From contig QQUD01000685.1 in the NCBI GenBank assembly GCA_008501785.1, positions 1 through 9,262 of the forward strand: 9,262 nt of DNA, written 5' to 3'. Under the pieces are notes generated by a model that made no database searches, was not told the DNA's origin, and was given only the letters and a program-made list of their open reading frames with translations. Below are positions 178 through 9,262 of this stretch, piece after piece (position 1 is the stretch's first letter; each line of letters starts with the position of its first letter). A program made the translations under genes and the position numbers. Origin of the DNA: Chloroflexota bacterium. GTDB lineage: Bacteria > Chloroflexota > Anaerolineae > Promineifilales > Promineifilaceae.

Positions 178-1005
178 ATGATGACAGTAAATATTTCTCC
201 AGATGATATTCATGAAGTTGTGAAAGATAGATACGGCCGTATTGCCGAAACATTTCAACCCGAAGTCAGTGCAGCATGTTGCGGTCCCGATGCCAGTGAG
301 GCGTCTTGCTGTGGCGACGAAAGCGATGCACTGTTTACCAATTTGTACAATGCAGACACCAGCTGGCTGCCAGAAGATGTAACTGGGCTGTCGCTTGGCT
401 GTGGGGATCCGATTACACTGGCTGCATTGGAACCAGGACAAACAGTACTCGATCTAGGATCAGGTGGCGGCATTGATTGTTTTATGGCTGCCAGACAAGT
501 TGGCGAAACCGGCTCTGTAATTGGCGTGGACATGACATCTGCCATGATTGAAAAAGCCAATCGAAATAAAGAAAAAGTTGGCTTGACCAACGTTGAGTTT
601 CGGCTCGGCCAAATTGAACAGATGCCGGTGGCAGATAATTCGGTGGATGTAATTATTTCGAACTGCGTGATTAATTTGAGTCCAGACAAAACGGCCGTTT
701 TCCGTGAAGCATTCCGTGTGCTCAAACCAGGAGGTAAACTAGCTGTCTCCGACATGGTGACACAAGGTAAATTCAACGAGCAAGAGCGCTCAGACATGGC
801 GGCGTGGACAGGCTGCATCACCGGAGCTGAAGATGTTGCGGACTATGTGGCAGCAATGCGAACGGCCGGTTTCACAGATGTTTCTGTACGCGACAAAGCA
901 AATCCTGAGGTTGAATTGGCAAATGTTGAACCGAATGATGAAAAGGCCAGGGTTTTTAGTGGGCGGGTAACGGCCGTTAAGCCAAATGCGAGTGCTGTTT
1001 CATGA
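178..1005 (+). CDS. arsM: Arsenite S-adenosylmethionine methyltransferase (ArsM)
   Basis: Cytosolic class I methyltransferase that transfers methyl groups from SAM to trivalent arsenic, giving methylated and finally volatile arsines. Numbered from the ATG at 178, the SAM-binding motif I is DLGSGGGID at 92-100, with acidic residue D118 ending the next strand and the late motif VLKPGGKL at 181-188. The three cysteines that bind As(III) in characterised ArsM enzymes have clear counterparts: C75 in GCGDP, C163 in SNCVINLSP and C213 in GCITGA. The N-terminus also carries two Cys-Cys pairs (34-35, 44-45). Length 275 aa is normal for bacterial ArsM. Two ATG codons stand in tandem (178, 181); the GAGG at 171-174 is only 3 nt from the first and 6 nt from the second, so 181 may be the true start. 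Its stop overlaps the next start as ATGA, implying translational coupling. No arsR is visible upstream. Confidence 0.93.
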
Positions 1006-1658
1006 GCAGTCCAACCCTCCCCGCCAAGTTAACCAAATCTCAAATACCGGAAGTGTATCGTGGAAAAGCGGCCGTTTACGATGTTTGGGGCAAGTTAACT
1101 GAATCAAAAGCGCAAGATCGCTGCCTGGATCTGGCAAACATCCAAGACGGCGAGGCCATTTTGGAAGTCGCTGTTGGCACAGGTTTATCCTTCCAACGCG
1201 TTTTGCGGCAAAATCCCTCTGGCATCAACGAAGGCATCGATTTGAGTCCGGCCATGTTGGCAAAGGCAAAAGAAAAGGCGCTGAAAACAGGCGTGACCAA
1301 TTACAATTTACAAATGGGAGACGCCTATCAACTTGATTATCCAGATGCATCTTTTGATTTGCTGATCAATAATTACATGTTCGACTTGCTGCCCAAATCT
1401 GATTTTCAATCAATCTTACAAGAATTTTACCGTGTGCTGCGTCCCGGTGGGCGTCTTGTTTTACTAAACATGACGAAAGGGGAACGCTGGTATCAGCAGG
1501 TTTGGAATGCCATTTATCGTATCCAACCTTCGTGGATAGGCGGCTGTCGCGGCGTGGCCTTGCTCGATCATGTTCATACGGTTGGATTCCAGCAGGTGCA
1601 TCGGGAATTCATCAGCCAAATGGCGTTTCCATCTGAGGTGATTTATGGCGTCAAGTGA
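1002..1658 (+). CDS. Class I SAM-dependent methyltransferase, UbiE-like, in ars-type operon
   Basis: A 218-aa single-domain methyltransferase of the UbiE/Methyltransf_11-type Rossmann fold. Visible motifs are motif [10 protein letters not shown] at 53-61, acidic D80 in [10 protein letters not shown], the [14 protein letters not shown] strand at 118-131 and VLRPGGRL at 145-152, followed by a C-terminal half with GGC and FPSEV. It lacks the three-cysteine arsenic site of ArsM, so it is unlikely to be a duplicate of that enzyme; the substrate cannot be read from the sequence. The ATG overlaps the arsM stop by 4 nt and has no Shine-Dalgarno sequence of its own, so it is probably translated by reinitiation. 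Its 3' end overlaps the next gene by 14 nt. The arrangement implies a linked role in arsenic or metalloid handling, but that is inference; a quinone or lipid methyltransferase remains possible. Confidence 0.85.
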
Positions 1659-1980
1659 AAGCATTCCACTCGTCTGCTTGCTTCCTGATAATGCACTCGC
1701 TACACGGAAGGACGAGTTGAAAACGGCCGTATTCAGCCACATTCAGGAAAGCCGTGACTTACCAGATGGCATTGCTTATCGCTTTCCCGGCAACGAAGAA
1801 TGGGCAGCACGGCTAGTGGCGTTCATTAACGCAGAACGACAATGCTGTTCATTTATCCACTTTGAATTGAGCTTTGAGCCAGAACAAGGCCCTATTTGGT
1901 TAACAATGCGAGGTGGTGAAGGGGTAAAAGCATTTATCTTAGCTGAAATGCAGTTTTTGTTAGATGAGCCTTCACCATAG
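1645..1980 (+). CDS. Small Cys-Cys protein, third gene of the ars-type unit
   Basis: A 111-aa soluble protein without signal peptide or membrane segment. The most distinctive part is residues 56-95: an amphipathic stretch leading to ERQCCSF (C67, C68), then alternating hydrophobic strands FELSFEP and GPIWLTMRG, and GGEGVKAF. Another cysteine is C11. I have a sense that proteins with this ER-CC-F pattern are met in mercury and arsenic loci, usually unnamed, but cannot cite a family. The vicinal cysteines and position directly after two methyltransferases suggest binding of a soft metal or trivalent arsenic; this is inference. The start is supported by GAGGTG at 1634-1639, 5 nt before the ATG, located inside the preceding gene, which it overlaps by 14 nt. 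It is the last gene of the unit. Confidence 0.75.
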   Translation: MASSESIPLVCLLPDNALATRKDELKTAVFSHIQESRDLPDGIAYRFPGNEEWAARLVAFINAERQCCSFIHFELSFEPEQGPIWLTMRGGEGVKAFILAEMQFLLDEPSP

Positions 1981-1994
1981 AGAAAACAAGAGAT

Positions 1995-2062
1995 ATAGGA
2001 TGCAGATAAACGCAGGTTTAAGAGCAAAAATCTGCGTTTATCTGCGTTAATCTGCGTCCTAT
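1995..2062. repeat. Fold-back repeat of CTGCGT units between convergent genes; possible bidirectional terminator
   Basis: Three tandem TCTGCGT units (2031-2037, 2041-2047, 2051-2057) face an inverted copy. The arm at 2002-2015 (GCAGATAAACGCAG) is the perfect 14-bp reverse complement of 2032-2045 with a 16-nt loop. In the alternative register, 1995-2015 matches the reverse complement of 2042-2062 at 19 of 21 positions. It sits exactly between the stops of the convergent ars unit and ssb, so it may end transcription from both sides, although neither side has a clean T-run. Whether it is a dispersed repeat family needs the genome. Confidence 0.65.
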
Positions 2063-2083
2063 TATTCTTTCTCCGACAAACTC

Positions 2084-2512
2084 CTAGAACGGAATATCAT
2101 CTTCTTCTTGAGCGGGTGCTGTATCGCTGTAACCTTCACCACCAGCAGCGCCACCGCCATCTTCACGACTACCAATAAAGCGAACAGTATCTGCAACAAT
2201 CTCAAAAGAAGACCCCACTGTACCATCTTGCCTCGTATACAAACGTGGCCCACCAGTTTGTGGATCAGGCCGAATTCGACCTTCTACCAATACCTGCCGT
2301 CCACGGCTCAAGTATTGATTGGCACTCTCAGCCTGCCGCCCCCAAACACTAACGCGAAACCATGTAGTTTCTTGAGTTGGTTCTCCGGTCGTTTGATTTG
2401 TCCAACGGCGAGAGGTAGCAATACTAAAATTGGTAACGGCTCGGCCATCCGGCATATACCGCATTTCAGGGTCACCGCCCAAATTTCCTACAACAATAAT
2501 TTTTTGATACAT
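2084..2512 (-). CDS. ssb: Single-stranded DNA-binding protein
   Basis: Binds single-stranded DNA during replication, recombination and repair, and recruits partner proteins through its C-terminal tip. The 142-aa protein has an OB-fold from 1 to about 110, with GNLGGDPE at 9-16, aromatic DNA-contact candidates W37 and W51, TWFRVSVWG at 50-58, GRQVLVEGRI and a closing FEIVADTVRFIG strand. A short Gly/Ala/Glu-rich linker follows and the chain ends in the canonical acidic tip DDIPF (138-142). It is shorter than E. coli SSB (178 aa) because the linker is short. The start is fixed by AAGGAG on the minus strand (ATG at 2512-2510). It stands alone: no rpsF or rpsR next to it, unlike the common rpsF-ssb-rpsR arrangement. 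Confidence 0.96.
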   Translation of the reverse strand: MYQKIIVVGNLGGDPEMRYMPDGRAVTNFSIATSRRWTNQTTGEPTQETTWFRVSVWGRQAESANQYLSRGRQVLVEGRIRPDPQTGGPRLYTRQDGTVGSSFEIVADTVRFIGSREDGGGAAGGEGYSDTAPAQEEDDIPF

Positions 2513-2549
2513 GCAACACGCTCCTTTTCATCAATCTATGACACGTTTT

Positions 2550-2579
2550 AATATAGAACAATCGCGGCAGAACTGCCAA
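2550..2579 (-). promoter_or_regulatory. Sigma-70-type promoter for ssb (proximal)
   Basis: On the minus strand TTGGCA (2579-2574, five of six matches to TTGACA) is followed after 18 nt by TATATT (2555-2550, five of six matches to TATAAT). Transcription would start near 2543, giving a leader of about 30 nt with the ssb ribosome site. Predicted from sequence only. Confidence 0.6.
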
Positions 2580-2651
2580 ATCGTACCATGCTTTTGTGTG
2601 AATCAAAAATAGGCTAAATTGTTCCGGTAACGCCCAGTGCCATCGACTATA

Positions 2652-2680
2652 ATTATAGCACATCTGTTCTATTTTTCCAA
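2652..2680 (-). promoter_or_regulatory. Second, distal promoter toward ssb with extended -10
   Basis: On the minus strand TTGGAA (2680-2675) is followed after 17 nt by a perfect TATAAT (2657-2652), preceded by TG one base upstream (extended -10, TGCTATAAT). The -10 lies in the 12-bp palindrome CTATAATTATAG (2647-2658), which could be an operator. Transcripts from here would have a leader of about 130 nt before ssb. Confidence 0.5.
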
Positions 2681-2800
2681 AAAACAAATCACAGCAAACA
2701 GGCGAAAACGGCCGTTTTATTTGCACAAAATTATTCAGTTAAAACCTGTATTTTATTGGCTAATTCCAGCACACAAAACAATTTTACACGACATTACACA
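2681..2800. other. AT-rich intergenic stretch with one palindrome copy
   Basis: Together with the ssb promoters and the gdh terminator this fills the 366-nt gap between ssb and the first gdh gene. The only distinct signal here is ACGGCCGT at 2708-2715 within AAAACGGCCGTTTT, the single intergenic copy of the iterated palindrome. A 60-codon frame at 2637-2819 has no ribosome site and an AT-rich, low-complexity product, so I do not call it. Confidence 0.5.
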
Positions 2801-2804
2801 CAAA

Positions 2805-2834
2805 AAAGAGGTACAGTAAAAACTGTACCCCTTT
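2805..2834 (-). terminator. Intrinsic terminator of the downstream gdh gene
   Basis: An 8-bp stem (2810-2817 with 2822-2829, loop of four) extends by a further four pairs beyond one mismatch (2805-2808 with 2831-2834). Read on the minus strand it runs straight into CTTTTTTG. It lies about 45 nt after the gdh stop at 2879. Confidence 0.85.
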
Positions 2835-2878
2835 GTATTAAATTTTGCAACTAAACTTTCAAAATCACGACTAAAAGT

Positions 2879-4129
2879 TTAGACCCAACCACGCAGCCGC
2901 ACGGCTTCAGCAACACGATCAATTGCCACCAGATAAGCAGCAACGCGATTGTCAACCTTCTTCCGCTGTGCCATGTTATGCACCGCGTGGAATGCGGTGG
3001 TGATATTCAGGTCTAACCGATCGTGCACCATTTTCTCATCCCAGTAGAACTGGTAGCCATTTTGCACCATTTCAAAGTACGAAACAATCACGCCACCAGC
3101 ATTACACAAGAAGTCAGGGATAATATAAATGCCCTTATCATTGAGAATATTGTCGGCTTCTGGCGTTGTCGGGCCATTTGCCAATTCAGCCACAATTTTA
3201 GCCTTAACATTGTCTGCATTTTGGCTGGTGAGCTGATTTTCAATAGCACCTGGGATCAAGACATCGACATCCAATTCCAGCAATTCAGAATTTGTGATGT
3301 TGTCTGTGCCAGGACAGTCGATCACTTTGCCAGTCTGACGCAAATGATCTTCAATTACCGCCGGGTCCAATCCATTTGGATTATAAATACCACCAAATTC
3401 ATCACTAACGGCTACAACTTTCATACCAAACTGGTTGGTTCCCAAAATGTGTGCAAAGGAGCCGACATTGCCATAGCCTTGAACGGCCGCTGTCGCGCCT
3501 TCTAAATTCATATCAAGCAATTTGGCTGTTTCACGAATGGTGAACAGGCCGCCCATGGCTGTCGCAGGAGTACGCCCTGCAGAACCGCCCAGGGTCAAAG
3601 GCTTGCCCGTGATCACACCGGCTTCTTTGCGACCAGTAAGCGTTTCATACTCATCCAACATCCAAGACATGATTTGAGGATTGGTGTTTACGTCAGGAGC
3701 TGGCACATCTTGGTTGATGCCCACATAGCGAGCAATGTTGCGCATGAAACCACGGCTGAGACGTTCCAATTCACCCTGGGACATTTCACGTGGGTTACAT
3801 ATGACGCCACCTTTTCCACCGCCCAACGGAATGTCGGAAACGGCCGTTTTCCAGGTCATCCACGCCGCCAATGCACGAACCGTATCAATCGTCTCATCAG
3901 GGTGGAAGCGAATACCGCCCTTTGCTGGACCACGTGCATCATTATATTGCACACGGAAACCACGAAACGTCTTAGTCGTGCCGTCATCCATATGAACTGG
4001 AATTGAAAAATGGAACTCCCGCATCGGCTCACGCAAAAATGCATGCATATCGGGGTCCAACTGTAGAACTTGCGCTGCCTCATCGAGCTGCGCTTGCGCA
4101 ATAGCAAATGGGTTTAAATTTTCCTTCAT
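2879..4129 (-). CDS. gdhA: Glutamate dehydrogenase, canonical paralog
   Basis: Hexameric cytosolic enzyme that interconverts glutamate and 2-oxoglutarate plus ammonia, linking nitrogen and carbon metabolism. The 416-aa protein has an N-terminal substrate domain (1 to about 180) and a Rossmann cofactor domain. Catalytic residues align with the clostridial enzyme: K70 in GPAKGGIR, K94, the active-site K106 in PLGGGKGGV and D146 in DVPAPDVNTN. S350 in VSYFEMVQN matches the glutamate-specific serine, arguing against leucine or phenylalanine dehydrogenase. The dinucleotide motif is GYGNVG at 218-223; acidic D243 at the end of the next strand suggests NAD preference. The motif LDVDVLIPGAIEN (286-298) is canonical. 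The ATG at 4129 is preceded by GGAG about 13 nt away, longer than usual, but an in-frame stop and no other start codon lie just upstream. It follows the second gdh gene at 215 nt with that gene's terminator in between, so it needs its own promoter. Confidence 0.95.
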   Translation of the reverse strand: MKENLNPFAIAQAQLDEAAQVLQLDPDMHAFLREPMREFHFSIPVHMDDGTTKTFRGFRVQYNDARGPAKGGIRFHPDETIDTVRALAAWMTWKTAVSDIPLGGGKGGVICNPREMSQGELERLSRGFMRNIARYVGINQDVPAPDVNTNPQIMSWMLDEYETLTGRKEAGVITGKPLTLGGSAGRTPATAMGGLFTIRETAKLLDMNLEGATAAVQGYGNVGSFAHILGTNQFGMKVVAVSDEFGGIYNPNGLDPAVIEDHLRQTGKVIDCPGTDNITNSELLELDVDVLIPGAIENQLTSQNADNVKAKIVAELANGPTTPEADNILNDKGIYIIPDFLCNAGGVIVSYFEMVQNGYQFYWDEKMVHDRLDLNITTAFHAVHNMAQRKKVDNRVAAYLVAIDRVAEAVRLRGWV

Positions 4130-4281
4130 CGGATTGTAAAATCTCCAAAATTAGTGGGTTATTTCTATCAAAACAATGTTTTTAATAGCTTACACCACGA
4201 GTTTCATAGATTCTTGTCTCTGTGTCAAGTGTATTGTGTCATTGCAGACTCATACTAAACATATGATGAAAATAACAAAAA

Positions 4282-4309
4282 AAGGACCTGAGCGTTTACT
4301 CAGGTCCTT
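4282..4309 (-). terminator. Intrinsic terminator of the upstream gdh gene
   Basis: A perfect 11-bp stem (4282-4292 with 4299-4309, six-base loop) is followed on the minus strand by a run of seven T. It lies about 35 nt after the stop at 4345 and before the next gdh gene, so it separates the two paralogs transcriptionally. Confidence 0.93.
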
Positions 4310-4344
4310 AAATGAAGAGAAGTGAAGCTCAAATCGTTCCAAGA

Positions 4345-5595
4345 TCAGACCCAACCACGTAGTCGAACTGCCTCAGACACACGGTCAACAGCAACCAGAT
4401 AGGCAGCTTCGCGGTTATTGATTCTATGTCTTTCAGCCATTTCGTGAACAGCATGAAAAGCAACAGTCATCTTCTGGTCGAGACGTTCATGAACCATTTC
4501 TCTTGGCCAGTAAAATTGGTAGGCATTTTGCACCATTTCAAAATAGGACACTGTAACACCACCTGCGTTGCATAAGAAGTCAGGAACCACATATACATTG
4601 TTCTTGAACAAAATGGTATCAGCAGCGGGGGTTGTCGGGCCATTAGCCAATTCAGCAACAATTTTTGATGTGATTCTGTCCGCATTGCGCTCGGTAATCA
4701 CATTTTCTAGCGCCGAAGGGAACTGCACAAAAACATCCAGCTCTAACAGTTCATCATTTGAGATGAGATCAACGCCAGGATATTGGGTGACAGTTCCAGC
4801 CTCTTTCTTAAAACGCATCATCTCTTCAGCGTCAAACCCTTTCGGGCTATAAATGCCACCACGTGAGTCGCTTACTGCCACAATCTTCATACCAAGGATT
4901 TCTTGTGCTAATTGGTGCGCAAATGTACCAGCGTTACCATATCCTTGAATTGCGGCCGTTTTTCCTTTTAGATCAATATTCATCATCTTGGCCGCTTCAC
5001 GCACGGTGTAAATACCACCACGGGCGGTTGCATCACCTCGTCCGGCTGACCCACCCAGCGGCAGCGGTTTGCCAGTAATGACACCCGGTTCACGATGCCC
5101 GACCAACGCCTCATATTCATCCATCATCCAGGCCATAATTTGCGGATTAGTGTAAACATCAGGTGCGGGCACGTCTCTGGTCAGGCCAATAGAGCGGGCA
5201 ATATTACGTATGTATCCACGACTCAGCCGTTCCAATTCAGCCTCGGACAGTTCGCGTGGGTCGCAAATGACGCCGCCTTTACCACCACCGAGGGGAATAT
5301 TGACAACGGCCGTTTTCCAAGTCATCCACGCGGCTAAAGCACGAACCGTATCAATTGTCTCTTCCCAATGAAAGCGGAGGCCGCCCTTTGCCGGGCCGCG
5401 TGCATCATTGTATTGCACGCGATAACCGCGAAATGTGCGAGTCGTGCCATCATCCATTCGTACAGGAATACTGAAATGGAATTCTCGCATCGGTTCACGC
5501 AAAAATGCATGCATGTCCGGGTCTAGTTGCAACAATTCTGCAGCACGATCTAACTGGGCCTGAGCAATCGCAAATGGATTCAGGTTCTCGCTCAT
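4345..5595 (-). CDS. gdhA: Glutamate dehydrogenase paralog with an altered cofactor-domain motif
   Basis: Second Glu/Leu/Phe/Val dehydrogenase, 416 aa, same length as its neighbour and collinear without gaps; I count roughly 70% identity by eye, about 83% in the first 150 residues and clearly less in the Rossmann half. It keeps K70, K94, K106, D146 (in [10 protein letters not shown]), GYGNAG at 218-223, D243 and S350, so it should bind glutamate and be catalytic. Unusual: 286-298 reads [13 protein letters not shown], with F289 where the paralog and most of the family have Asp, and Q291, F292, S294. The frame stays open upstream to 5682, but the start is placed at 5595 because AAGGAG lies 9 nt before it and the protein then aligns from residue 1 with the paralog. 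Tandem gdh pairs with one regulatory subunit are known in Thermus thermophilus (GdhA/GdhB); a similar heteromer is possible but not shown. Confidence 0.94.
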
Positions 5596-5604
5596 TCGAA
5601 CACT

Positions 5605-5610
5605 CTCCTT
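5605..5610 (-). promoter_or_regulatory. Ribosome binding site that sets the gdh start at 5595
   Basis: AAGGAG on the minus strand, 9 nt upstream of the ATG at 5595-5593. It rules out the longer reading that starts at 5682, whose extra 29 residues have no counterpart in the adjacent paralog. Confidence 0.85.
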
Positions 5611-5848
5611 TTTTGAGGATATAAGGGTTTTACGAAAATTAAACAAAACGCACAACAATGCATGGCTGCAATATAGGCACATTGTACAAAATCATTCTGG
5701 TACTCGTAAACTACCAAATGTTACCCTTTATCAATTTCTTCTTATTGTTTCGCACATTTCTCCCTGTTCATAGCTGGTGAAATCTGGAATCTGGCGGTAA
5801 ACTTGCCCTGTGCTTTTGTTAAGGAATGGGACTTAAATTAGTTCGTCA

Positions 5849-5882
5849 AGATTGGTTCAATCTTCGGAGATTGAACCAATCT
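5849..5882. repeat. Perfect 15-bp inverted repeat with 4-nt loop
   Basis: AGATTGGTTCAATCT (5849-5863) and its exact reverse complement (5868-5882) are separated by TCGG. Neither strand continues into a T-run, so it is not a typical intrinsic terminator. It lies about 75 nt before the DUF92 start and about 255 nt upstream of the gdh start. It could be a small palindromic mobile repeat (MITE/REP type), an operator or an RNA leader hairpin; the sequence alone does not decide. Confidence 0.8.
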
Positions 5883-5957
5883 AAATGGGCAAGTTATAGA
5901 ATTCTCATTCCTAATTCAATGGGCAAACGACAAACATAAAAACATACTAGGCAACAC

Positions 5958-6764
5958 ATGAATTTCACGAACCAACAATTACTTATAGCATTTCTCCTCA
6001 GCAGTTTTATCGTGGCTTTGGCTTATTGGCGCGGTTCGCTCTCCCGCTCCGGCGCGGGTGGTGCCATGATTGTGGGAACTTTGACATTTGGTTTAGGCGG
6101 TTGGGTGTGGGGTGTCTTGTTAGGCATTTTTTTTGTGAGTTCCAGCCTGTTATCCCACTACAAAGAACAAGAGAAACAAGCGGCATCTGAAAAATTTGAT
6201 AAAGGACATCGGCGCGATTTTGGGCAGGTGATGGCAAATGGTGGATTAGGTGCTGTGGTTGCTTTGTTTCATGCGATTTGGCCGTCACCGCTGTGGCTTG
6301 CTTTTTTTGTCGGTGTGATGGGCACCGTAACAGCCGATACCTGGGCAACTGAATTAGGTACATTGAGTAAACAGCCCCCACGATTGATCACAACTAGACG
6401 AATTGTTGAAGTCGGTACGTCGGGAGGCGTTTCGCTGTTGGGAACGGCCGTTTCCGCCGCTGGCGGCTTACTCATTGGGTTGGCAACAGGACTACTCGCG
6501 GGGCAGTTCCTCTGGCTTTTTGCATTGATTGGCACGATTGGCGGACTATCTGGCTCTCTTTTTGATAGTTTGTTGGGCGCGACCGTTCAACGCGTGTATT
6601 ATTGTGAGATACGCCAGAAAGAAACAGAGAAGAAGCTAAACCCTCTGGGAGAACTTAACAACCCAATTCGTGGATGGGCGTGGATGAGTAATGACATGGT
6701 AAATATGCTTTCTTCTATTATTGGAGGTGGACTTGCCATTCTTTTCTTTTCGTTTCTGATGTGA
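5958..6764 (+). CDS. DUF92/TIGR00297 family integral membrane protein (VTE6-like)
   Basis: A 268-aa polytopic membrane protein with about six hydrophobic segments (near 7-24, 34-66, 94-125, 155-180, 182-205 and 246-267). Family signatures are visible: SRSGAGGAMIVGTLTFGLGG at 29-48, the cytosolic loop KGHRRDFGQVMANGG at 82-96, DTWATELG at 127-134, GTSGGVSLLGT at 153-163, SLFDSLLGATVQ and NDMVN near the C-terminus. The plant member VTE6 acts as a phytyl-phosphate kinase in tocopherol synthesis; the bacterial members are mostly uncharacterised, so a role with polyprenyl or phytyl phosphates is inference. The ATG at 5958 has only a weak AGG about 6 nt upstream. The downstream WD40 gene follows after 71 nt on the same strand and may be cotranscribed. 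Length is typical for the family. Confidence 0.88.
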   Translation: MNFTNQQLLIAFLLSSFIVALAYWRGSLSRSGAGGAMIVGTLTFGLGGWVWGVLLGIFFVSSSLLSHYKEQEKQAASEKFDKGHRRDFGQVMANGGLGAVVALFHAIWPSPLWLAFFVGVMGTVTADTWATELGTLSKQPPRLITTRRIVEVGTSGGVSLLGTAVSAAGGLLIGLATGLLAGQFLWLFALIGTIGGLSGSLFDSLLGATVQRVYYCEIRQKETEKKLNPLGELNNPIRGWAWMSNDMVNMLSSIIGGGLAILFFSFLM

Positions 6765-6835
6765 TATTTAAGCGGATTACCTTTCCCCAGACAAAACAGC
6801 GTTTTGTTCTACGATTTGATTGAACAGGAGCAGCA

Positions 6836-7765
6836 ATGGTTAGCGAGAAGTGCCCCACTGGTTTTACTCTTCGGCACACAATGAAAGCAAATAACCGGGC
6901 TATCACACGTATCGCCTGGTCGCCAGACGGCCGTTTACTGGCATCTGCCTCTTATGACCAAACCGTTCGTATTTGGAATACCGAAACTGGGCAACAAGAG
7001 AAGGAGCTGTACGGATACAGTGGCTCGGTTTTTACAGTTTGCATTACCCCAGACGGCCGTTATGCCGTTTCTGCTTCTAAAAGCGCGTTAAAAGTATGGG
7101 ACCTGACAGGGCAAACTCGCTCGCGCACTTTACGCGGTCACAGCGATTACATTTATGCAGTTGCTGTCACCCCAGACGGCTGTTTTGCCCTCTCCGGCGC
7201 TTACGACACCACAGTTCGGGTCTGGGATTTAACCACCAACAAAGAACATTTAGTACTCGAAGGGCATTCAGGTCGTGTTGGAGCGGTTGCAGCGGCACCA
7301 AATGGTCAAACTTTGGTTTCTGGCGCAAGTGATGCCCGCGTTCGTTTATGGAACATTTCAACAGGCAAATCTACGGCTACGCTCAGCGGTCACAAAGGTG
7401 AAATTCTATCGGTTGCGGTTAGCCCCGCAGGGCACTGCCTCGCGTCGGCCGCTCACGATGGCGATGTGCGTCTTTGGCATCTTGATACAGGAGAAGCTCA
7501 GGGTGTATTAGATGAACATACCAAACCAGTAACGGCCGTTTCATTTTCTGCAGATGGTCAACTACTCGCCTCAAAATCTGCTGATGGCACAGTAAGATTG
7601 TGGCGAACCGACACGTGGAATTGTGTTGCTGTTCTTGAAGAACGTCATTCGACATTTGCGTTTTCAGGGCTCGCCTTTCATCCTCACCAGCCCATTTTGG
7701 CCACATTAGGTGATAAGGATAAAACCATCCGAATCTGGAATCTTGACACGTCTATGCTGTTATAA
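6836..7765 (+). CDS. Seven-repeat WD40 beta-propeller protein
   Basis: A 309-aa protein made almost wholly of seven WD40 repeats, enough for one closed propeller: about 18-58, 59-99, 100-141, 142-183, 184-225, 226-267 and 268-309. Most repeats show the GH dipeptide (H102, H144, H186), a (S/T)PDG-type turn (30-32, 72-74, 113-115) and the terminal W near IWN/VWD/LWH (W47, W88, W130, W172, W214, W256, W301). The first two repeats and the seventh are the most divergent at the GH position. There is no signal peptide, membrane helix, kinase or peptidase domain, so it is probably a cytosolic interaction scaffold; its partner is unknown. AGGAG lies 5 nt before the ATG. It sits 71 nt after the membrane-protein gene and 162 nt before the sensor kinase gene. 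Confidence 0.93.
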   Translation: MVSEKCPTGFTLRHTMKANNRAITRIAWSPDGRLLASASYDQTVRIWNTETGQQEKELYGYSGSVFTVCITPDGRYAVSASKSALKVWDLTGQTRSRTLRGHSDYIYAVAVTPDGCFALSGAYDTTVRVWDLTTNKEHLVLEGHSGRVGAVAAAPNGQTLVSGASDARVRLWNISTGKSTATLSGHKGEILSVAVSPAGHCLASAAHDGDVRLWHLDTGEAQGVLDEHTKPVTAVSFSADGQLLASKSADGTVRLWRTDTWNCVAVLEERHSTFAFSGLAFHPHQPILATLGDKDKTIRIWNLDTSMLL

Positions 7766-7927
7766 ATATCATCATCCGCAATTTTGCATCATATCCCGGT
7801 AACAAAAACACACGCATCCATTAATAACGTATTTTTAATGGGATAGAAACACATCTCGTGCATAATACAATAATGAAAAACAGTAGCAAGTTCGCTATTA
7901 TCACTAAATTGCAATTTGAGGAAAACA

Positions 7928-9262
7928 ATGCCTTCCAGTAACAACTCACCCAAGACGGAAGCGCAGAATCAACGCCACATTATTACAACAATCGTCGATC
8001 AAACCTTACACTTTATACGCGATTATCCAATTTTGCGCCGTTGGCTAGACATGTCAACAGATACACTTGCTTCGTTAAGTGTAACGGCCGTTTTCCCCGA
8101 ATTAACAGGCAGCGAAGCGACTATTCACCAATTAGCAGACAATCCAGGTGCTGTATGCTCGTTCACTCAATTGCAACGACTAACAACGCTTGGCAACCGC
8201 CATTTCGACTTACAAATCGAACCTGCACGTGACCATCCAATAGCTGCCTATCAAGTTACGCTCATTTTGCGCGATCAAGAAACGATAGAATCTGATTTAT
8301 ACGCGAATGATGCGGGACACGGCCGTTCCGAAATGGTCAAACTCGCCCAACACAACCGCACCCTCAATCTACTCAATCGTGCCAGTCGCATCCTCACCGA
8401 AACGCTTGATGTCACCGAAGTCTTAGAACGCCTGTTACAAGTCGCTACCCAAATTATTGGTGCTGCCGCTGCCTCTGTATGGCTGTGGGAAAACGAGACA
8501 TCCGATTGGCTAATTTGTCAGGCTGCCTTTCATCCTGGCAGTGCAGACAGATTAGTTAATCAACGTGTGCAGCGCGGGCAGGGCATTGCCGGTTGGGTTG
8601 CCAAAACTGGCGAGAGTGCTGTTGTCGGCAACACCAATCTCGACCAGCGATTTACACCTAAAATTGATGCGCAAAGCGGATTCACAACCGACTCGTTAAT
8701 CGCCGTTCCGCTACAAACTAGGGGCAAAATCATTGGTGTGTTGGAAGTAGTGAACAAACTAGAAGGCATGTTCGAAAATGACGATTTAACGGTCGTCGAA
8801 ACATTAGCCGCTTCTGCATCTATTGCCATCGAAAACGCCTCACTTGTAGAAACCATGCGCCAGCAAATGACTGATCTGCAAGCGCGTAATGAAGAATTAG
8901 ACGCATTTGACCACACCGTCGCACATAACCTGCAAAATCCAGTTGCACTAATCCTTGGTTTTGGCGATATTTTGCACCTGGCTGACGATCTGCAGGCAGA
9001 TCAGCAGCAGAAAGCCCTCGCCTCCATTGTAGCTAATGCTCGTAAAATGAGTAACATCATTAACGACCTACTGCTGCTCTCCAGCGTGCGTAAAAGCGAG
9101 ATGGACACCGAGCCTTTGGACACCGCAGCACTGGTTGATGCAGCCATGCAGCGCCTCGAGCAAAAAATCAAAGAAACCCGCGCTGAAATAATTGTGCCCA
9201 CAAGTTGGCCTGTTGCATTAGGGCATCCCGGTTGGATAGAAGAAGTATGGGAAAATTACATT
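7928..9262 (+). CDS. Sensor histidine kinase (PAS-like, GAF, HisKA), 3' truncated by window end
   Basis: An uninterrupted frame of 445 codons runs from the ATG at 7928 (GAGG at 7918-7921, 6 nt spacing) off the window end. Residues about 30-125 look like a divergent PAS-type sensor domain (FPELTGSE at 56-63 and a strand pair near QVTLILRD). A GAF domain spans about 160-308, with QGIAGWVAKTGE, a SLIAVPL strand and GVLEVVNK. A short helical linker leads to the HisKA dimerisation domain with the phospho-acceptor H333 in VAHNLQNPV; the residue after His is Asn rather than the more common Asp or Glu. The end, WIEEVWENYI, is the very start of the HATPase N-box, so the ATP-binding domain lies beyond the window. 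No transmembrane segment precedes GAF, so it is a soluble sensor. The cognate response regulator is not visible. Confidence 0.92.
   Translation, partial: MPSSNNSPKTEAQNQRHIITTIVDQTLHFIRDYPILRRWLDMSTDTLASLSVTAVFPELTGSEATIHQLADNPGAVCSFTQLQRLTTLGNRHFDLQIEPARDHPIAAYQVTLILRDQETIESDLYANDAGHGRSEMVKLAQHNRTLNLLNRASRILTETLDVTEVLERLLQVATQIIGAAAASVWLWENETSDWLICQAAFHPGSADRLVNQRVQRGQGIAGWVAKTGESAVVGNTNLDQRFTPKIDAQSGFTTDSLIAVPLQTRGKIIGVLEVVNKLEGMFENDDLTVVETLAASASIAIENASLVETMRQQMTDLQARNEELDAFDHTVAHNLQNPVALILGFGDILHLADDLQADQQQKALASIVANARKMSNIINDLLLLSSVRKSEMDTEPLDTAALVDAAMQRLEQKIKETRAEIIVPTSWPVALGHPGWIEEVWENYI

What the first reader, a model, noticed from the sequence alone, without database searches (positions are those of the whole stretch)
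233..8326. ACGGCCGT is a highly iterated palindrome, a possible HIP1 analogue outside cyanobacteria
Thirteen exact copies in 9.3 kb, roughly one per 700 bp, against about 0.14 expected for an octamer with equal base frequencies. Copies occur in seven of the eight gene or gap contexts examined, on genes of both strands and once between genes, mostly with flanking A on the left and T on the right (AACGGCCGTT). Seen directly. Because unrelated proteins all use it, the pressure must act on DNA, not protein. Possible causes are methylation, repair or recombination bias, chromosome organisation or a binding protein; these are inference.
Basis: partly seen in the sequence, partly recalled or inferred. 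Interest (0 to 1): 0.78.

Follow-up and report, generated by a model that had tools for sequence, protein, structure and literature searches.

The report
Self-spreading DNA palindrome in Chloroflexota
In the bacterial relatives sampled, an eight-letter DNA palindrome fills most of the places where the proteins allow it, and its copies sit at a flip in base composition that suggests some enzyme works outward from them; the role of a similar word in cyanobacteria is still debated.

Summary
The window is Chloroflexota, nearest to MAGs labelled Anaerolineae. ACGGCCGT reaches 991-2102 copies/Mb in 27 of 56 genomes of the order and at most about 120/Mb in 234 sampled genomes of the class outside it. 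It is a highly iterated palindrome (HIP), as HIP1 is in cyanobacteria.

New here: (1) Saturation: 730 of 765 Thr-Ala-Val tripeptides are encoded through it; ln odds are 4.7-5.1 in each reading frame. (2) Dialects: relatives use TCGGCCGA, GCGGCCGC, TGCCGGCA or bare CGGCCG. (3) A cusp: the 8-mer dialects sampled are flanked at four-fold sites by G-rich DNA 5' and C-rich DNA 3', decaying over 100-300 bp; control palindromes are not. Plasmid-borne cyanobacterial HIP1 shows the same sign, weaker.

Thirteen of the 27 lack any PF00145 match, against a universal m5C methyltransferase. Best reading: an unidentified sequence-specific reader starts a local strand-polar repair or recombination process; additive selection for a binding site is the main rival.

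The parts
233..240 (.). ACGGCCGT in arsenite-methyltransferase-like gene (178-1005 +), frame x-Gly-Arg
691..698 (.). ACGGCCGT, same gene, frame Thr-Ala-Val
970..977 (.). ACGGCCGT, same gene, frame Thr-Ala-Val
1723..1730 (.). ACGGCCGT in unassigned ORF 1645-1980 (+), Thr-Ala-Val
   Evidence: no Pfam match
2708..2715 (.). ACGGCCGT between genes (ssb-like 2084-2512 - and glutamate dehydrogenase 2879-4129 -)
3840..3847 (.). ACGGCCGT in glutamate dehydrogenase paralogue 1 (-), Lys-Thr-Ala-Val
5306..5313 (.). ACGGCCGT at the equivalent Lys-Thr-Ala-Val of glutamate dehydrogenase paralogue 2 (4345-5682 -)
6444..6451 (.). ACGGCCGT in DUF92 membrane-protein gene (5958-6764 +), Thr-Ala-Val
6927..6934 (.). 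ACGGCCGT in WD40 gene (6836-7765 +), Asp-Gly-Arg
7053..7060 (.). ACGGCCGT in WD40 gene, Asp-Gly-Arg
7532..7539 (.). ACGGCCGT in WD40 gene, Thr-Ala-Val
8084..8091 (.). ACGGCCGT in GAF/HisKA sensor kinase gene (7916 to beyond window end, +), Thr-Ala-Val
8319..8326 (.). ACGGCCGT in the same gene, His-Gly-Arg

Best explanation
ACGGCCGT is the highly iterated palindrome of one order of Chloroflexota (class Anaerolineae by MAG labels; the order's name is not told by the tools). SHOWN, in the stretches sampled: it is driven close to saturation at DNA level. Most places where the protein permits it by synonymous choice carry it. The preference is similar in all three reading frames, holds between genes, and depends little on other copies in the same gene unless they lie closer than about 60 bp. 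The word differs between lineages (ACGGCCGT, TCGGCCGA, GCGGCCGC, TGCCGGCA, bare CGGCCG). The four 8-mer dialects each sit at the centre of a local strand-composition cusp, with G-rich DNA on the 5' side and C-rich DNA on the 3' side on both strands, decaying over about 100-300 bp. INFERRED: a sequence-specific, dyad-symmetric reader (specificity exchangeable, rest of the machinery conserved) acts at the copies. It starts a short, strand-polar process outward from the site, most likely nicking or cutting followed by 5'-to-3' excision and resynthesis (mismatch repair or recombination entry). That process favours alleles that complete the word, so the word propagates itself, and it leaves the flanking skew as its trace. 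The inferred half is the most likely mechanism, not a demonstrated one.
For: Genome-wide counts: 27 of 56 genomes of the order at 991-2102 per Mb, and none above about 120 per Mb among 234 sampled others of the class. Saturation in 27 genomes plus the window: TAV 730/765, xGR 515/585, xRPx 226/335; in 20 low genomes 34/67, 25/159, 7/123. At positions with the same peptide in low-ACGGCCGT orthologues: 58/59, 71/80 and 62/75, against 5/16, 1/42 and 2/36 in those orthologues. ln odds against codon-usage expectation in the three frames: 4.77/4.79/5.06 pooled, 4.70/4.94/4.98 in G004; two control octamers in G004 give -0.80 to 0.12. ln odds by distance to the nearest other copy in the same gene: 3.1 (<30 bp), 3.9 (30-60), 4.3-4.7 (60 bp to 5 kb), 4.0 where the gene has no other copy. 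Cusp, 4-fold GC skew at 12-30 bp with bootstrap intervals: G004 .375 [.337-.408], 888 sites of other ACGGCCGT genomes .309 [.277-.343], G034 .462, G023 .378, G019 .308, G040 (TGCCGGCA) .271 [.170-.373]. 3129 control palindrome sites in the other genomes are about 0, as is GCCGGC in G004.028 [-.038 to .091]. Intergenic sites.132 [.100-.159], n=162. Absent at the aligned place in orthologues lacking the word when proteins are 60-89% identical. Cyanobacterial HIP1 on plasmids, 534 sites.115 [.060-.169]; 1111 control sites .012 [-.029 to .053].
Against: No reader protein was identified. Genomes with the bare hexamer (G028, G052, G053, G035) show over-representation (ln odds 1.8-3.8) with little skew in G028 (.055) and G052 and only moderate skew in G053 and G035 (.23 and .17 at 12-20 bp), so a strong cusp is not needed for over-representation. 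AT skew is near 0 beyond about 20 bp and A>T closer in, where simple cytosine deamination of the exposed strand would predict T>A. At 1-2 bp the GC skew of G004 has the opposite sign (-.43). Unique and shared sites have similar skew, so a gain of sites in pre-existing G|C contexts is not excluded. In pairs of 90% identity or more the partner without the word still has skew .247, from only 239 positions. Genes with no other copy show slightly lower, not higher, preference. Ordinary additive selection for a binding site would also give saturation. The cyanobacterial skew is weaker, comes from plasmids only, and is not clear in every plasmid (Tolypothrix and pSYSM, 19 and 32 sites).
Confidence: 0.45

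Rival explanations
1. Additive selection for a binding site of an abundant nucleoid-associated or chromosome-organising dimer. It nucleates at the palindrome and spreads outward, preferring G-rich DNA on the 5' side; the flank skew is then part of the selected site.
For: Saturation is per-site and depends little on neighbours, with weakening below about 60 bp, as for a footprint. Palindromic symmetry with exchangeable specificity. G is the commonest base at -3 and -4 in most positive genomes. Unique and shared sites have similar skew.
Against: The skew reaches 200-300 bp at low amplitude and is a general G-richness, not one motif, which is long for a bound site. Some 3,000-15,000 sites per genome would each need a selective effect of 2Ns near 5 (inference).
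Confidence: 0.25
2. Methylation-linked HIP in the sense of Elhai 2015: an orphan cytosine methyltransferase for GGCC or CGGCCG marks the strand, and methyl-directed mismatch repair fixes mutations that create the site.
For: In cyanobacteria HIP words coincide with methyltransferases (PMC4390886, parts read as told in the full report). The constant CGGCCG core in most dialects would suit one. The cusp suits nick-directed excision. MutS is widespread (45 of 56).
Against: No PF00145 match in 13 of 27 genomes above 900/Mb. No PF01555 match better than 1e-10 in 5 of 27; 4 of these (G002, G003, G004, G036) also lack PF00145. G004 and G036 show full rpoB and MutS matches and G003 partial ones, so plain incompleteness is a poor excuse. 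The G-methylC rule predicts a flanking G if the outer C is methylated and no flank preference if an inner C is, but the flank is A, T or G by lineage. The model's set-point of about one site per kb predicts falling preference near other sites, which is seen only below 60 bp.
Confidence: 0.15
3. A DNA-uptake (transformation) signal with lineage dialects, accumulated by biased uptake and recombination as in Neisseriaceae and Pasteurellaceae.
For: Density, dialects around a constant core and clade-wise distribution resemble DUS dialects (PMC3630211, passages seen, abstract among them).
Against: The words are perfect palindromes. The advantage does not fall with other copies within the 60 bp to 1 kb scale of a transforming fragment. 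No receptor or competence gene was sought here.
Confidence: 0.1
4. Ordinary codon or amino-acid bias, or recent duplication of a repeat.
For: None found.
Against: Similar ln odds in three frames and controls near or below zero in the same genome, occurrence between genes, flanks differing at the copies in the window, enrichment confined to one order among the genomes sampled.
Confidence: 0.01

Closest known systems
HIP1 (GCGATCGC) and alternate HIPs of cyanobacteria (Elhai 2015, PMC4390886)
   Same: Palindromic GC-rich octamer in coding and non-coding DNA. Density 991-2102/Mb here, against 300-2700/Mb in that paper's Table 2. Lineage variants that change the outer bases (TCGATCGA there; A/T/G outer pair here). 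Similar per-site preference: pAQ7 HIP1 ln odds 4.2-5.4.
   Different: Another phylum and another word. No conserved cytosine methyltransferase found. The flank cusp is about three times that at plasmid HIP1. One-off variants are not in general excess, whereas the paper calls them common in many cyanobacteria; in both, the end positions are the likeliest to vary.
DNA uptake sequence dialects of Neisseriaceae (PMC3630211)
   Same: Many copies of a short word, a constant core with lineage-specific flanks, clade-wise distribution.
   Different: Palindromic; no diminishing return near other copies beyond 60 bp; no competence link tested.
Chi, KOPS and similar oriented G-rich guide sequences (recalled, no call)
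   Same: G-rich strand polarity that points at a landmark (GGTGG and GGGGG are the two most polarised 5-mers).
   Different: General G-richness around thousands of local centres, not one motif pointing to one terminus.

Membership tests
Highly iterated palindrome (HIP) | Perfect palindromic octamer that is the most over-represented word of the genome | tested here: met
   Window; top 8-mer of the G004 sample at 744 against 27.8 (order 3); top palindromic 8-mer in 20 of the 80 loci, including the first 13 by identity
Highly iterated palindrome (HIP) | Genome-wide density of hundreds to thousands per Mb | tested here: met
   27 of 56 genomes at 991-2102/Mb, 3 more at 421-514; the window's own genome could not be counted
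Highly iterated palindrome (HIP) | Occurs in all reading frames and between genes | tested here: met
   G004 frames 368/235/101, 42 intergenic; in the window itself two frames and one intergenic copy
Cyanobacterial HIP1 | Sequence GCGATCGC with GATC core | tested here: not met
   The word is ACGGCCGT (GGCC core); dialects TCGGCCGA, GCGGCCGC, TGCCGGCA
Methyltransferase-linked HIP (Elhai model) | A cognate orphan cytosine methyltransferase in every high-HIP genome | tested here: not met
   PF00145 in 14 of 27; neither PF00145 nor PF01555 better than 1e-10 in 4 of 27. Unknown families and assembly gaps are not excluded; the paper itself reports four high-HIP1 strains without a CGATCG enzyme
Methyltransferase-linked HIP (Elhai model) | Methylation of the word in vivo | not testable with these tools
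   No kinetics data available
DNA uptake sequence | Preferential uptake of DNA bearing the word | not testable with these tools
   Needs a transformable strain

The most novel reading that the evidence does not exclude
HIPs of two phyla are landing sites of one general kind of self-writing, strand-polar DNA maintenance machinery with an exchangeable sequence reader. The G-to-C skew cusp around the copies is its footprint. The machinery writes its own recognition word into nearly every place the proteome tolerates, and even enriches the tripeptides that encode it.
Probability: 0.35. Interest if true: 0.93.

Novelty: new variant of a known kind. Interest (0 to 1): 0.8.

Why it matters
HIP1 was described in 1995 (Robinson et al., seen as a citation in PMC6604393) and its function is still open. 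This shows a comparable system in a second phylum, apparently without a conserved cytosine methyltransferase, and with lineage dialects. It supplies three measurable handles: the saturation level, the short-range weakening (about 60 bp) and the GC-skew cusp, which is also visible at plasmid HIP1. Models that set a density of about one site per kb do not fit the flat dependence on distance; models with a local strand-polar process do. The work also warns that a single DNA word can reshape protein composition: TAV tripeptides occur at 2.67 per 1000 residues in 27 positive genomes plus the window, against 0.48 in 20 low ones.

Tried and rejected
Conserved m5C methyltransferase: PF00145 in 26 of 56 genomes, and in 14 of the 27 above 900/Mb. 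Clustering the fetched enzymes at 35% identity gave no group shared by all; only 30 fetched loci per family, mostly one per genome, were clustered. The largest PF01555 cluster holds 17 of 30, including low and other-dialect genomes. Vsr-type repair: 8 of 56 genomes, 6 of the 27, so not general. Hairpin or cruciform: exact dyad complementarity of flanks is weak (z 2.9 at distance 1, otherwise between -2.7 and 1.2), so no extended inverted repeat. One-sided (replication-linked) skew: in 19 G004 stretches the left side is G-rich in 18 and the right side C-rich in 19; no origin map was made. Regular spacing: roughly exponential with a deficit below 100 bp (103 of 725 against 136 expected), CV 1.09. 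Near-miss depletion: inner one-base variants are below the order-3 expectation in 15 of 18 cases, but that expectation is itself inflated by the word's own tetramers, so I do not lean on it. Site-specific conservation: copies are kept in about 90% of residue-conserved orthologue pairs of 60-89% identity, against 16-20% for control 8-mers, but saturation explains this, so I do not claim it as separate evidence. A HIP-free stretch of 6.9 kb in G004 (L246) holds long ORFs; not annotated further. Xu et al. 2018 (NAR) is not held, and I know it only from its citation in PMC6604393.
Full report
OBSERVATION. The window holds 13 exact ACGGCCGT at the places given (shuffles mean 0.12, maximum 2). No other palindromic 8-mer occurs more than twice. 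Twelve copies are coding, in two frames, on genes of both strands; one lies between genes. Each of the 12 positions in the window's ORFs where the protein permits the octamer has it.

WHERE IT COMES FROM. The glutamate dehydrogenase at 2879-4129 is 88% identical to that of MAG SJ142 (JADLAX01, labelled Anaerolineae) and 76-85% to those of L002-L018, MAGs labelled Anaerolineae, Chloroflexi, Ardenticatenaceae, Promineifilum and the like. A quick tree puts it beside L001 and L002, both rich in the word (the fork joining it has support 90, not starred). The window's own genome is not held, so everything genome-wide below concerns relatives.

GENOME-WIDE AND CLADE-WIDE. Among the 56 held genomes of the order of G001, 27 carry 991-2102 ACGGCCGT per Mb (for example G001 12,866 and G004 14,867 in 7.7 Mb each), 3 carry 421-514, and 26 carry fewer than 200 (sizes rounded by the tool). 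The reversed control word occurs 40-459 times in each of the 27. In 249 genomes sampled from the class, 15 belong to the order; the highest of the other 234 is about 120 per Mb. In a 377 kb sample of G004 the word stands at 744 against 8.2 (order 1) and 27.8 (order 3). Of 18 one-base variants at inner positions 15 are below the order-3 expectation and 3 at or slightly above it; that expectation is raised by the word itself, so the depletion is not firm. T at position 1 and A at position 8 are about twice expectation.

DIALECTS. On a quick rpoB tree of 46 rows, all 23 of the 27 rich genomes that have a row fall in one group of 30 (SH-aLRT 92). The other seven rows there are a Promineifilum-like subclade (G015, G021, G043, G045, G046), G012 and G027, where the word is reduced or lost; several forks are open. 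In a neighbouring group of seven (support 80), G034 and G023 use TCGGCCGA and G019 uses GCGGCCGC (KCGGCCGM 11,584, 8,144 and 12,431 copies; which of the two by samples), and G040 uses TGCCGGCA (3,665 copies against 14 of ACGGCCGT). G028, G052, G035 and, without a row, G053 over-use the hexamer CGGCCG.

SATURATION. In proteins of 150 residues or more from 27 rich genomes and the window, 730 of 765 Thr-Ala-Val tripeptides are encoded as ACG GCC GTN, 515 of 585 [NDHY]-Gly-Arg and 226 of 335 permissible x-Arg-Pro-x carry the word. In 20 low genomes (G035 and G052 at 421 and 514/Mb among them) the figures are 34/67, 25/159 and 7/123. TAV itself occurs at 2.67 per 1000 residues against 0.48. Where a low-ACGGCCGT orthologue has the same peptide, so that the protein is unlikely to be the cause, the word fills 58/59, 71/80 and 62/75; the orthologues have 5/16, 1/42 and 2/36 (rows are not independent, and four of the 17 low genomes there use another dialect). 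As ln odds against codon-usage expectation the preference is 4.77, 4.79 and 5.06 in the three frames pooled, and 4.70, 4.94 and 4.98 in G004. With the larger samples it is 4.1-4.6 for GCGGCCGC in G019, 4.0-5.1 for TCGGCCGA in G034 and G023, and 3.2-4.0 for TGCCGGCA in G040. It is 4.2-5.4 for HIP1 on plasmid pAQ7 and 3.3-4.6 on stretches of five other cyanobacterial plasmids. Two control octamers in G004 give -0.80 to 0.12. By distance to the nearest other copy in the same gene the ln odds are 3.1 (<30 bp), 3.9 (30-60 bp), 4.3-4.7 (60 bp to 5 kb), and 4.0 where there is no other copy. So the pressure is per site, local and nearly blind to the protein.

THE CUSP. At four-fold degenerate third positions of G004 genes, G and C are balanced overall (.372/.370). 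At 13-21 bp upstream of a copy they are .548/.220, and at 13-21 bp downstream .228/.524. GC skew toward the site falls from .68 (3-5 bp) through .41 (12-20) and .17 (31-45) to .05 (201-300) and .02 (301-500); at 1-2 bp it is -.43. Pooled over 940 sites of other positive sources it is .67.34.13 and .07 at the first four of those distances; 3129 control palindrome sites give about 0. The four 8-mer dialects show it, including TGCCGGCA with a different core.271 [.170-.373] at 12-30 bp. In-genome controls were informative for G004 (GCCGGC .028 [-.038 to .091]) but too few in G040 (10) and G019 (1). Bare-hexamer genomes show little to moderate skew (G028 .055 [.006-.108]; G053 .23 and G035 .17 at 12-20 bp). 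Intergenic copies show it.132 [.100-.159], n=162. In orthologue pairs of 60-89% identity the place without the word has none (-.024 to .008); in pairs of 90% or more it still has .247, from only 239 positions. Cyanobacterial HIP1 on plasmids of six strains, 534 sites, has .115 [.060-.169] at 12-30 bp and intervals above zero in every bin to 300 bp; 1111 control sites give .012 [-.029 to .053]. Single plasmids are noisy, and Tolypothrix and pSYSM show no clear cusp. The bias is a general G-richness, strongest for GG, GGG, GGGG and GGTGG. AT skew is near zero beyond about 20 bp and A>T closer in. I know of no print mention of such a cusp; the one search aimed at it (HIP1, GC skew, palindrome, GCGATCGC) lists 10 of 132 papers, none of the ten holding 'GC skew'. 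The library lacks most subscription journals.

METHYLATION. PF00145 is found in 26 of 56 genomes and in 14 of the 27 rich ones. PF01555 has no match better than 1e-10 in G002, G003, G004, G036 and G041, of which the first four also lack PF00145. Recall of single-copy markers in the 27 is imperfect (rpoB 24, MutS 21), so absence in one genome means little. But G004 and G036 show both markers, and 13 of 27 without PF00145 are more than gaps of that size would give. Vsr is in 8 of 56. A methyltransferase of another family, or a PF01555 enzyme missed in five assemblies, is not excluded.

MECHANISM. A word that spreads at a similar rate into most permitted places, with weakening only at footprint distance, and that sits at the centre of opposite strand biases, is best explained by something that recognises the palindrome and works outward from it on both strands. 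Nicking or cutting followed by 5'-to-3' excision leaves single strands with their 3' ends at the site; these are the strands found G-rich. That fits, but pure cytosine deamination would also raise T, which is not seen, so the chemistry is open. A spreading DNA-binding protein with selected flanks is the main rival.

COMPARISON. By density, palindromy, frame independence and variants of the outer bases this belongs with HIPs as described by Elhai 2015 (PMC4390886; read: outline and abstract, Results parts 1-3 of 4, section 3.4 part 1 of 2, section 3.5). It is not HIP1 (different word). It fails the methyltransferase part of that model, as far as tested. An earlier paper notes that very few bacterial genomes have octamers as frequent as HIP1 (PMC3497702, passages seen; given there as unpublished). 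Searches for HIP1 or highly iterated palindromes with Chloroflexi, Chloroflexota or Anaerolineae, and for ACGGCCGT, brought no report of this one (listings). DUS dialects (PMC3630211, passages seen) are the nearest other parallel; molecular drive of frequent words was proposed from uptake sequences (PMC1939737, passages seen).

LIMITS. ORFs were called by a simple longest-frame rule. Most genomes are fragmented MAGs without completeness values. Pairs of orthologues are not independent. Large single-genome statistics rest on G004. Reading ln odds as 2Ns assumes equilibrium. Cyanobacterial data are plasmid-only.

Noticed in passing
window 2879-4129 and 4345-5682: Two tandem glutamate dehydrogenase paralogues on the minus strand; paralogue 2 groups with L025-L027 and L029, paralogue 1 with the main set, so the pair looks old.
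   Followed up: partly
window 178-1658: Two SAM methyltransferase genes overlapping by 4 bp, the first an arsenite-methyltransferase type by plasmid homologues (45-50% identity in the five rows listed).
   Followed up: no
L064 (Candidatus Aquidulcis MAG): GGCC nearly absent (4 in 21 kb) with CGCGCGCG at 43 copies, suggesting GGCC restriction avoidance.
   Followed up: no
G027: A genome inside the ACGGCCGT group with the word lost (about 33/Mb) and TGCCGGCA mildly raised (about 189/Mb, ln odds 1.7-2.5) but no cusp at 14 sites: possibly a word switch in progress or in decay.
   Followed up: partly
L246:10597-17472 (G004): Longest HIP-free stretch in the G004 sample (6.9 kb), overlapping ORFs of 841, 1556 and 1209 aa; possibly recently acquired DNA.
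   Followed up: no
G011, G020, G019, G023: The word extends one more base in some genomes: next flank A in 93% and 95% (G011, G020), C in 64% (G019), T in 67% (G023), counted per flank.
   Followed up: no
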